NCBI GenBank assembly: GCA_003978765.1
Contig: QNYO01000007.1
Span: forward strand, 1-64,000
Origin: Hydrogenimonas sp.
Lineage (GTDB): Bacteria; Campylobacterota; Campylobacteria; Campylobacterales; Hydrogenimonadaceae
Length of the DNA stretch: 64,000 nt
Reading direction: 5' to 3'
Positions within the stretch are counted from its first letter, which is position 1, and each line of letters starts with the position of its first letter. Below the pieces are notes generated by a model that worked only from the letters and a program-made list of their open reading frames with translations, was not told where the DNA came from and made no database searches. This document shows, one piece after another, positions 39,150 to 42,310 of this stretch. Made by a program: the position numbers and the translations under genes.

Positions 39150-39225
39150 TATGATATAATCTTAGAACTATCGGTTATTGACACAAAACTCTGAACGGTC
39201 TCTCAAATTCCAATAATTTGTTAGG

Positions 39226-39735
39226 TTATTTTATCCACTCATCAATAATTTTTGTTAATTCTTTATCATATGTATCATGATTAGAATGTTCTTCAAGTGG
39301 ATTTTGCCACCATCTTTTATGTACTCTTACCCATTCTTTATAATCAACTAGATTTAGCATTTTTTCTTCATTTTTTGTATATGAATATGTATCTGAAATT
39401 AAATTAAAAATCATTTCACAATATTGTTCATATTGCAAATATTTTTTTACAGTTTCATCTTCAAAATTGATTTTAGAGTTTTTTCTATATTCTTCAGCAA
39501 AATCATCCCACCCGTCTATAAATTGTTTATTTTCTAAAAATGGATTATGAAAAGCAATATCTTGAATTTTAAATAATCTATCATTTATAGTATTTTCAAA
39601 TCCAAAAGCTCTATTTTTATGATAAAAAAATATGCTTAAACCTGTAGAAAATAGCAATGATAATGCTAAAACAATAGTTTTTAAATCAATATAATTCGAT
39701 TGTAACAAACAATGTATAGTTGCATTACTATCCAT
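39226..39735 (-). CDS. Single-TM hypothetical protein of the caspase/kinase island
   Basis: TM helix IVLALSLLFSTGLSIFFY followed by a ~140 aa soluble helical domain; 6 bp after the caspase-like gene. Confidence 0.65.
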   Translation of the reverse strand: MDSNATIHCLLQSNYIDLKTIVLALSLLFSTGLSIFFYHKNRAFGFENTINDRLFKIQDIAFHNPFLENKQFIDGWDDFAEEYRKNSKINFEDETVKKYLQYEQYCEMIFNLISDTYSYTKNEEKMLNLVDYKEWVRVHKRWWQNPLEEHSNHDTYDKELTKIIDEWIK

Positions 39736-39741
39736 ATCTAT

Positions 39742-40458
39742 TTATTCTCCAAGTGAAAATGGCAATATTTTTTTTGATTTAATACAACTGCATTGTGGAT
39801 TTTGCTTATTACTAGTTTTCTCTTGCACTATTTTTTTTGCTTGCAAGTAGGCTACTCTTGAATTTAGAATTTCTTCATTATTGTTTAGTGCGACTTTTAA
39901 TAAGTTATATGCGAAATATCCACCTAATTCTGAATCATCTTGTGATGATTCATCGATGCTACTTGAATATAATATAACTTGTTGATTAGGACATTTTATT
40001 ATGGCTTCTTGATACATTGCTCTGTAATCTTTATGGAATTTATATCGCTCTCCAAGACTTTCCATTGCTATTACAGTTTTTTCAAAAGGAATATCATTTT
40101 CTACTCCTGCACAAGTATCAAGTATTGTTATTTGTTTATTAGCTATATTGATTAATTCATTCTCATAAATAAAATCGTTATAAAGATATAATTTTCTACA
40201 TTCTTTCCAACTAGAATAACTACCGTGGCCACTAAATAATAAAAATACAAAATCATTATTTTCTTTTTTAATATCTTCTAACTTTTTTAAGACCTGTTCT
40301 TTTGTTTCGTCTAAAGATAGTATTATTTCATTTTCATACCACTTACCACCCATATTAGATTTCAGAAATTTATTATAATTTTGAACATCTTTTTTTACAC
40401 CCTCAAGATATTCTTCTGGTTCTCCTGAGTTTCCTATAATTAGAGCTCTTCTTTTCAT
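39742..40458 (-). CDS. Caspase-like (peptidase C14-type) protein
   Basis: MKRRALIIGNSGEP; His motif FVFLLFSGHGSYSSW; Cys motif ITILDTCAGVEND; good SD AAAGGA. Confidence 0.85.
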   Translation of the reverse strand: MKRRALIIGNSGEPEEYLEGVKKDVQNYNKFLKSNMGGKWYENEIILSLDETKEQVLKKLEDIKKENNDFVFLLFSGHGSYSSWKECRKLYLYNDFIYENELINIANKQITILDTCAGVENDIPFEKTVIAMESLGERYKFHKDYRAMYQEAIIKCPNQQVILYSSSIDESSQDDSELGGYFAYNLLKVALNNNEEILNSRVAYLQAKKIVQEKTSNKQNPQCSCIKSKKILPFSLGE

Positions 40459-40477
40459 GAGTATCCTTTATTAAATT

Positions 40478-40527
40478 TAACCTAACGACTGACTTCACTG
40501 ACAGGTTTACCTATTCGGTGCTAGGTT
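40478..40527. repeat. attC-like imperfect palindrome between kinase and caspase genes
   Basis: Minus strand AACCTAGC...GTTAGGTTA; R' consensus GTTRRRY matched, inner stem CACCGAATAGG/CCTGTCAGTG. Confidence 0.35.
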
Positions 40528-40539
40528 TTATTAGCATTT

Positions 40540-41613
40540 TTAATAACATTCATATTCATCTGGTCGTAAAGGTGGATAATTTCTACCTGAGTCTATATAT
40601 TTTTTTTGAAAATCTATAGGTTTATCATTTAAATCTCCGAAACGATAATCCCAGAAAAGTCCAGCAGCTACTCCTAATGACATTCTGCTTGAACTTTTAA
40701 CTTTAAGTAAACCTTCTAAAATTCTAATTAAAATATAATTATTATCCAATTTATCGTGGATTGAAGTAAGCTTATGGCTGATTATATTTTCAATTTCTTT
40801 TGTACATACTAAATGTGCATATTCTGAAATAGATTCAATATTTAAAATATCTTCACCTTTAAGAAGTTTATAAAATAATATACCAATAGCCCAAGCTTCT
40901 CCACAACCAGGATTATAACTGAAAGCATCTATTGGATTTGAAAATATTTCTGGTGGCAATGATCTAAAGGAACCTTCAATTCTTCTATTTACATTTTGAT
41001 AAATTTTTTCATTGCCATGTCCATCATCTTCATAATTAAATGCAAGTGGCATAATTGCATTACCAAAGTCAGTAATAATTACCTTTGCATCAACAAAGTT
41101 CCTAGCAGTATGAAACTGGTTAGCCCATTCTGGTTCTTCATCTAAAAAAATAATATTTCCAGGATGGAAGTCTCGATGTGAAATCATTGTTGCCATATAT
41201 GCCGCTGAACTGCAACATCTGTGGACTATATTAATTATTTCTTCTAAAGTAGGATTATTTAATTCTAAAAGAATTTTTTCTAAAGGTTTGCCATTTATCC
41301 ATTCTGTAGCATAGTAATATATTGGCAATGTTTCATGCTCACTAGCAATTAGTATACGAGGTACTATTTTTATAGGCTTCATTCTTTCTGATTCTAAGAA
41401 CTTTGCTTCCATTTTAAATTTATATAATTCTAACTCATTTCTTGGTGAAATTAAAAATTTAATAAATATTTTTTCATCAAAATTTTCAATATTAAAATAT
41501 TTAAAAGAGGAAGCACCATTTCCACCAAGTTGAGATTCTATTTGATACACTTTATTATCAATAGTAATTTGATCTAATTTGGCTAGAGTTAAAATATTTT
41601 TATCTTTATTCAT
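40540..41613 (-). CDS. Ser/Thr protein-kinase-like protein
   Basis: Gly-rich LGGNGASSFKYF, KIFIKFL lysine, ISHRDFHPGNIIF, IITDFGNA, SLPPEIF, AWAIGILFYKLLKG; ATG at 41613 overlaps the upstream stop. Confidence 0.85.
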   Translation of the reverse strand: MNKDKNILTLAKLDQITIDNKVYQIESQLGGNGASSFKYFNIENFDEKIFIKFLISPRNELELYKFKMEAKFLESERMKPIKIVPRILIASEHETLPIYYYATEWINGKPLEKILLELNNPTLEEIINIVHRCCSSAAYMATMISHRDFHPGNIIFLDEEPEWANQFHTARNFVDAKVIITDFGNAIMPLAFNYEDDGHGNEKIYQNVNRRIEGSFRSLPPEIFSNPIDAFSYNPGCGEAWAIGILFYKLLKGEDILNIESISEYAHLVCTKEIENIISHKLTSIHDKLDNNYILIRILEGLLKVKSSSRMSLGVAAGLFWDYRFGDLNDKPIDFQKKYIDSGRNYPPLRPDEYECY

Positions 41614-42015
41614 ACGAAACAACCTTATATTTTTCACAAAATAACATAATTTCATTACATGATTTTATTGCTTTTTGTAAGTTTCCTATTTGATATTCAT
41701 TTTCAATTATAAATTCTTCAATAGACATCCATGGATAATCTTCAATTTCAATTAAATCATGACATTTGGGACTCCAGCATATTTCGAAGTCACCTATAGG
41801 TTCAATTACTGCAATTTCTCCGTACTGTTTAGCACTTTGTATATCACCAGTACAAAAAATGCTTTGGCTTCTAAATCTTATGCCAAACTTTTTCATAAAA
41901 TACTCATCAACACGCTCATGTATATTTAAAGCTAAATTTCTAGGCTTACGATTTTTCTTGTAGTGATGATACTTCCAATTTCTGGTAAATTTTTAAAACC
42001 TCTATATAATTTGAT
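41606..42015 (-). pseudogene. Small island protein, frameshifted (possible ADP-ribosyltransferase-like LYRG protein)
   Basis: IKLYRGFKNLPEIGSIITTR[K] in one frame joins KNRKPRNLALNIHERVDEYFMKKFGIRFRSQSIFCTGD... in the next at A5 tract 41952-41956; one inserted A restores a ~136 aa ORF. Confidence 0.6.
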
Positions 42016-42021
42016 AGTATT

Positions 42022-42085
42022 ACCTCCACTGCTAACTATTTATTCACTTTCAAAAAATAGTATCAAAAACAATATATTTTGTCAA
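42022..42085 (-). promoter_or_regulatory. Sigma70-like promoter and Shine-Dalgarno of the island operon
   Basis: -35 TTGACA (42085-42080), 17-bp spacer, -10 TACTAT (42062-42057), SD GGAGGT (42027-42022), 6 nt before ATC 42015-42013. Confidence 0.75.
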
Positions 42086-42141: not shown

Positions 42142-42300
42142 TTAGAAAGAAGGATCTAGAGTACTCCATAAAAAGCTTGAAGAGCGATTTATGGAGCAAA
42201 GAATTATAACCGTTGAAAAAATTAGAAAAGGCGTTGAAACAGCCTTTTCTATGATAGTAGCTAAGCTTGATGAAGAGCAACAAGTGTTGTTGCTCAACTA
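42142..42300 (+). pseudogene. 3' remnant of an unidentified gene at island edge
   Basis: Open frame KEGSRVLHKKLEERFMEQRIITVEKIRKGVETAFSMIVAKLDEEQQVLLLN* begins directly after an in-frame TAG; no matching upstream gene. Confidence 0.35.
42275..42295. terminator. Perfect stem-loop at island/core junction
   Basis: GAGCAACAA-gtg-TTGTTGCTC; no U tract. Confidence 0.4.
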
Positions 42301-42310
42301 GAAATTTAGA

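What the first reader, a model, noticed from the sequence alone, without database searches (positions are those of the whole stretch)
39220..42085. Kinase + caspase-like + TM-protein operon in an AT-rich island: best candidate for an undescribed conflict/defence system
Seen: four minus-strand ORFs in an island between asnB and a YeiH-family gene, with a visibly more AT-rich composition than the flanks. Gene order is small LYRG protein (frameshifted) -> complete Ser/Thr-kinase-like protein (start overlaps previous stop) -> caspase-like protein with SGHG/DTCAG -> single-TM protein 6 bp later, all behind one TTGACA-N17-TACTAT promoter. Knowledge: bacterial caspase-like proteases and Hanks-type kinases occur as components of abortive-infection or programmed-death modules. 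Inference: kinase as sensor/transducer, protease as executor, TM protein as substrate or membrane effector. I do not recognise this gene combination as a named system.
Basis: partly seen in the sequence, partly recalled or inferred. Interest (0 to 1): 0.78.

Follow-up and report, generated by a model that had tools for sequence, protein, structure and literature searches.

The report
Integron carrying two conflict-gene cassettes
The four genes are not one new defence operon but two separate two-gene conflict modules (a small undescribed protein plus a kinase, and a caspase-like protease plus a membrane protein), carried as two cassettes of a short chromosomal integron that has lost its integrase gene.

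Summary
The interpretation changes. (1) The promoter sits 12 bp upstream of AATAAATAGTTA (42033-42044), the attI core found beside the integrase gene in all four related integrons where one was found; 28 copies in 18 congeneric genomes against 4 for a reversed control. (2) The caspase+membrane-protein segment has a cassette's defining signature: its first bases are complementary over 9 nt to its own 3' end (0/5000 shuffles), as in related cassettes. The first cassette's own attC is degenerate. (3) Homologues split exactly at this boundary. Small protein+kinase recurs alone in Marinomonas, on a Pantoea plasmid and in a P2-like prophage. Caspase+membrane protein recurs on Leptospira plasmids. 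No locus but the window has all four. So this is a short integrase-less integron with two independent conflict modules. The small protein (broken here by a frameshift and lacking a standard start codon) is in no Pfam, NCBIfam or PADLOC family. Its fold matches multi-copy giant-phage proteins and nothing solved. Defence function is inferred, not shown. Interest: moderate.

The parts
42057..42085 (-). Integron cassette promoter (Pc): TTGACA-N17-TACTAT
   Evidence: Sequence read directly. A TATACT/TATAAT-type box sits at a similar place upstream of the attI core in many congeneric copies. Assignment as Pc is by position.
42033..42044 (-). attI core AATAAATAG|TTA; crossover G at 42036
   Evidence: Invariant in all four congeneric integrons that keep integrase sequence. 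Expected 0.02 times in the window. 28 copies against 4 for the reversed control in 18 genomes.
40486..42035 (-). Cassette 1: small LYR protein + kinase, ending in a degenerate attC
   Evidence: Begins at the attI crossover and ends at G40486. Its own start/end complementarity is only 6 of 7 (p=0.08), so its right end rests mainly on the start of cassette 2.
41606..42015 (-). Small LYR-family protein gene, broken: ATC at the start position and a frame change in an A-run near 41942-41946
   Evidence: Homologous to the Pantoea protein (E=1e-11) and the Marinomonas protein (E=1e-18).
40540..41613 (-). Ser/Thr-kinase-like protein, intact (beta-3 Lys, HRDxHPxN, DFG)
   Evidence: Pkinase E=7e-10. PADLOC PD-T4-6 models E down to 2e-11, partial. 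Catalytic residues invariant in relatives.
40486..40536 (-). attC of cassette 1, degenerate (R''-like TGCTAAT; no clear L stem)
39168..40485 (-). Cassette 2: caspase + membrane protein + attC
   Evidence: Cassette start GTTAGGTTA against 3' end TAACCTAAC, 9 nt, 0/5000 shuffles. Congeners obey the same rule with 8-10 nt.
39742..40458 (-). Caspase-like protease (Peptidase_C14), catalytic His (SGHG) and Cys (DTC) intact
   Evidence: Pfam E=4e-18. His and Cys invariant in the Leptospira relatives.
39226..39735 (-). Single-TM membrane protein with a C-terminal soluble part
   Evidence: TM at residues 20-38. Homologues adjacent to caspase genes on Leptospira plasmids.
39168..39228 (-). attC of cassette 2: R'' TAACCTAAC (39228-39220), L'' TTATTG (39216-39211), L' CAATAA (39180-39175), crossover G 39168
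   Evidence: Sequence read directly. Statistics. Its 5' part TAACAAATTATTGGA resembles congener attC TAACAAATCATTGGA.

Best explanation
The island is a short chromosomal integron without its integrase gene: a cassette promoter (Pc), the attI site and two cassettes read from Pc. Cassette 1 carries a translationally coupled pair, a small LYR-family protein and a protein kinase. Cassette 2 carries an independent pair, a caspase-like protease and a single-TM protein. Shown here by sequence comparison: platform, attI, cassette 2 boundaries, the two pairs as separate evolutionary units, intact catalytic residues, broken small-protein gene. Inferred mechanism: each pair is an anti-phage or toxin-type module captured by integrase-mediated recombination. 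In cassette 2 the caspase, once triggered, cleaves its membrane partner, releasing or opening it and damaging the membrane. In cassette 1 the kinase regulates the small protein, which resembles proteins that giant phages encode in many copies; the kinase more likely restrains it than the reverse, because the kinase stays intact where the small protein is lost. In this genome module 1 is therefore probably inactive and module 2 probably active. My confidence is about 0.85 for the integron/two-module architecture and about 0.4 for the functional mechanism; the number given here is for the whole reading with mechanism steps marked as inferred.
For: attI core shared with all four congeneric integrons retaining integrase sequence, rare by chance, enriched genus-wide, and followed by the cassette-end complement in eight congeneric loci. 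Cassette 2 self-complementarity of 9 nt. Pair 1 alone: Marinomonas L049, Pantoea L025, prophage L056. Pair 2: Leptospira plasmids. A 44%-identical caspase in G302 is followed immediately by a different 3-TM protein, so 'caspase + membrane partner' recurs with changing partners. Defence neighbourhoods: Shedu gene near the Leptospira pair; prophage cargo. Integrons as defence stores: Darracq 2025, Getz 2025, Kieffer 2025, cited in PMC12444791.
Against: No integrase gene or remnant in the window, and only Xer-like matches in the own genome, which is 80% complete. Cassette 1's own attC is weak (6/7, p=0.08). My crude attC scan did not beat shuffled sequence and the attC folds are not more stable than shuffles. 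Only three or four independent examples of each pair were found. In L. noguchii the membrane protein occurs without a caspase, and the L. mayottensis copy of it is truncated. No phenotype was tested.
Confidence: 0.7

Rival explanations
1. One reading: one four-gene abortive-infection system in which the kinase senses or transduces, the caspase executes and the TM protein is its substrate.
For: Same strand, one promoter, one run of genes in the window.
Against: Pair 1 occurs without caspase in three other lineages and pair 2 without kinase on Leptospira plasmids. A cassette boundary separates them. The small-protein gene is broken while the rest is intact.
Confidence: 0.07
2. Cassette 1 is a toxin-antitoxin pair: the small protein is an ADP-ribosyltransferase-like toxin (LYRG Arg, RSQxxFCT, GEIMLY Glu as R-S-E motif) and the kinase neutralises it by phosphorylation, as TakA does for TglT. 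(Compatible with the integron reading; it is a rival on mechanism.)
For: Arg, Ser/Thr and Glu columns are conserved. The element order of the confident model is compatible with an ART core (my reading). The kinase survives without the small protein. Kinase-as-antitoxin has precedent (PMC7205606).
Against: Foldseek against PDB gave no significant match; an ART, pertussis S1, had the best TM-score seen (0.32), but with E=5.8 and probability 0.03. No ART family matched in Pfam or NCBIfam and no PDB sequence relative was found.
Confidence: 0.3
3. Decaying genomic debris: horizontally acquired AT-rich genes of no current function, with attI and attC relics that no longer recombine.
For: No integrase, degenerate attC1, non-standard start codon and frame break in the small-protein gene.
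Against: Kinase, caspase and TM frames are full length with all catalytic residues intact, the promoter is near consensus, and attC2 is well formed.
Confidence: 0.2

Closest known systems
Chromosomal integrons as stores of anti-phage systems (Vibrio; Darracq 2025, Getz 2025, Kieffer 2025, cited in PMC12444791)
   Same: Pc, attI and cassettes carrying small conflict modules in a chromosome
   Different: Very short (two cassettes), integrase missing, different host group, modules not in the defence libraries searched
CALIN / integrase-less integrons reported in Sulfurovum sp. NBC37-1 (PMC10295459)
   Same: Cassette structures without integrase
   Different: Here attI and Pc are retained and only one well-formed attC exists, so the formal CALIN definition (two or more attC sites) is not cleanly met
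PD-T4-6 and other single-kinase anti-phage systems (PMC9519451; Stk2)
   Same: Eukaryote-like Ser/Thr kinase, relatives on mobile DNA; PADLOC PD-T4-6 models match to E=2e-11
   Different: Paired with the LYR protein in every locus found; matches cover part of the models; MADS mad6 scores better for two relatives
TakA-TglT (Rv1044-Rv1045) kinase-antitoxin pair (PMC7205606)
   Same: Two-gene pair with a kinase beside a possible toxin
   Different: No sequence relation shown; partner is the LYR family, not a nucleotidyltransferase; mechanism untested
Caspase-based bacterial conflict systems (EACC1-associated caspase NF047832; gasdermin-linked proteases)
   Same: Caspase-fold protease beside a membrane-associated partner
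   Different: Score far below the NF047832 cut-off (33.7 against 140 bits); partner is a single-TM protein of an unnamed family

Membership tests
Chromosomal integron | attI recombination site next to the first cassette | tested here: met
   AATAAATAGTTA at 42033-42044, as in four congeneric integrons
Chromosomal integron | Cassette promoter Pc upstream of attI | tested here: met
   TTGACA-N17-TACTAT 12 bp upstream of the attI core; activity not testable here
Chromosomal integron | attC sites ending each cassette | tested here: inconclusive
   Cassette 2: 9-nt start/end complement, 0/5000 shuffles, plus a 6-bp L stem. Cassette 1: 6/7, p=0.08. Crude scan not above chance.
Chromosomal integron | intI integrase gene | tested here: not met
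   No remnant in the window; only Xer-like hits in the own genome, which is 80% complete. Hence 'integrase-less integron', not a complete one.
PD-T4-6 defence kinase | Ser/Thr kinase matching the PADLOC models | tested here: inconclusive
   E=2e-11, partial and cross-matching many kinase models
PD-T4-6 defence kinase | Single-gene system | tested here: not met
   Kinase is paired with the LYR gene in all four loci (and the window)
EACC1-associated caspase systems | Caspase reaching the NF047832 cut-off | tested here: not met
   33.7 bits against a cut-off of 140
Caspase-fold protease (Peptidase_C14) | Domain match and catalytic His/Cys | tested here: met
   66.3 bits against a cut-off of 21.4; SGHG and DTC
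ADP-ribosyltransferase (small LYR protein) | ART fold | tested here: inconclusive
   Confident model (pLDDT 89) but no significant PDB match
TakA-TglT-type toxin-antitoxin | Kinase phosphorylates and neutralises a toxic partner | not testable with these tools
   Needs expression and kinase assays

The most novel reading that the evidence does not exclude
The small-protein+kinase pair is an undescribed conflict system in which bacteria, plasmids and prophages place under kinase control a protein fold that giant phages deploy in many copies, possibly as injected effectors: a domain shared between attack and defence.
Probability: 0.35. Interest if true: 0.72.

Novelty: new variant of a known kind. 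Interest (0 to 1): 0.5.

Why it matters
It extends the integron-as-defence-store idea to a bacterial group outside Vibrio and shows how an apparent multi-gene operon can be an integron array of unrelated modules, a trap for gene-neighbourhood discovery of defence systems. It also names two compact, testable pairs. One includes a protein family with no named domain whose only structural relatives found are multi-copy giant-phage proteins of unknown function.

Tried and rejected
Profile searches of the small protein and TM protein in Pfam, NCBIfam and PADLOC: nothing significant. Rfam over the island: nothing. General attC scan by box motifs: no better than shuffled DNA, replaced by the cassette start/end rule. 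DNA folding of the attC sites: not more stable than shuffles. intI remnant near attI: none. Empty-site comparison at the YeiH gene in congeners: neighbours differ, so no clean empty site. Kinase, caspase and TM searches over about 300-350 genomes of the phylum: almost only the window. LYR searches over 369 and 392 genomes around Marinomonas: only Marinomonas. E. coli genomes: none. ART identity of the small protein by PDB fold search: not supported. Weak TM-protein hits in G042, G100 and G141 had other partners or broken frames and were not used. The AlphaFold job for the TM protein did not finish.

Full report
Observation. The four minus-strand genes, the AT-rich island and the promoter are as described. 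The small gene is read in two frames that join near an A-run at 41942-41946, and its start position carries ATC, where the Pantoea homologue has TTG. The kinase keeps its beta-3 Lys, HRDxHPxN and DFG, and the caspase keeps SGHG and DTC.

Where the unit boundaries are. Homologues split cleanly. Small protein + kinase occur together, without caspase or TM protein nearby, in Marinomonas arctica (L049, 4-nt overlap), on a Pantoea agglomerans plasmid (L025) and at the end of a P2-like prophage contig next to tail genes (L056). Caspase + single-TM protein occur together on Leptospira plasmids in the opposite order, followed by a DEAD/DEAH helicase, with a Shedu gene close by in one. In L. mayottensis the TM gene is truncated, and in L. 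noguchii the TM gene occurs without caspase. In genome G302 of the same order a 44%-identical caspase is followed immediately by an unrelated 3-TM protein. So the caspase keeps a membrane partner while the partner's family changes.

What joins them here. Congeneric genomes carry integron integrases (TIGR02249: G002 above the cut-off, partial in G015, G009, G005). In all four, about 145-270 bp upstream of the integrase start, lies CAATAAATAG|TTA or GAATAAATAG|TTA, immediately before the first cassette. The window has the same 12-mer once, 12 bp downstream of the -10 box and just before the first gene; 0.02 copies are expected by chance in the whole window. Across 18 congeneric genomes it occurs 28 times against 4 for the reversed control, often behind a conserved GGTATACTTTGTTNATAC promoter-like stretch. 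A cassette's first bases must be complementary to its own R'' box (established knowledge of attC sites). This holds with 8-10 nt in G002, G009 and G005, and the exact 8-mer complement is found downstream of the motif in eight copies genus-wide. The window's cassette 2 obeys it with 9 nt (GTTAGGTTA/TAACCTAAC; 0 of 5000 shuffles). Cassette 1 only reaches 6 of 7 (p=0.08), so its attC is degenerate. No integrase remnant exists in the window.

The small protein. It matches no Pfam, NCBIfam or PADLOC family, but does match phage families phrog_11975 and phrog_15932 of unknown function. A phage contig encodes three tandem ~290-aa homologues, each starting MRLIKYINE. I note, as inference from my knowledge of the T4 head-protease consensus, that INE resembles a prohead cleavage site, so these may be packaged and injected. 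AlphaFold on the Marinomonas protein gave pLDDT 89 and pTM 0.85. Foldseek finds 18 significant viral models, mostly multi-copy proteins of giant phages (Atu_ph07, marine phages), one annotated with a Zeta-toxin domain, and nothing significant in PDB. An ADP-ribosyltransferase fold was my working idea from the motif pattern R...S-x-T...E; it is not confirmed.

Function. Shown: architecture, homology and intact active sites. Inferred: caspase acting on its membrane partner, kinase acting on the small protein, and both as phage or plasmid conflict modules. Loss of the small protein with retention of the kinase argues against a toxic kinase restrained by the small protein. Integrons storing anti-phage systems are established in Vibrio (Darracq 2025, Getz 2025, Kieffer 2025, as cited in PMC12444791), and integrase-less integrons are reported in Sulfurovum NBC37-1 (PMC10295459).

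Verdict. Observation confirmed. 'One undescribed kinase-caspase-TM system' is not supported; 'two separate conflict modules in an integrase-less integron' is. Interest 0.5.

Noticed in passing
L058-L085 (18 congeneric genomes): The attI core AATAAATAGTTA occurs 28 times against 4 for a reversed control, often with a conserved GGTATACTTTGTTNATAC box and frequently without a detected integrase nearby: a genus-wide set of small chromosomal integrons or orphan attI platforms.
   Followed up: partly
L055:2711-5309: A phage contig encodes three tandem ~290-aa LYR-domain proteins, each starting MRLIKYINE, which looks like a packaging propeptide.
   Followed up: partly
L086:419-3000: Caspase 44% identical to the window's, followed immediately by a 260-aa 3-TM protein and preceded by a HEWSH-containing (HExxH-type) protein: a related module with a different membrane partner.
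   Followed up: partly
L026 / L027: On Leptospira plasmids the TM+caspase pair is followed by a DEAD/DEAH-box helicase and a small gene, with a Shedu gene nearby in one plasmid: possibly a larger defence system.
   Followed up: no
window 42155-42303, + strand: An open frame ending KLEERFMEQRIITVEKIRKGVETAFSMIVAKLDEEQQVLLLN* lies between the YeiH-family gene and attI; it may be the tail of a disrupted gene.
   Followed up: no
L030 and L044 (G001:C1:1179762 and 1290779): Two YeiH-family copies give identical match statistics about 111 kb apart in one genome listed with 5% contamination: possible duplication or assembly artefact.
   Followed up: no
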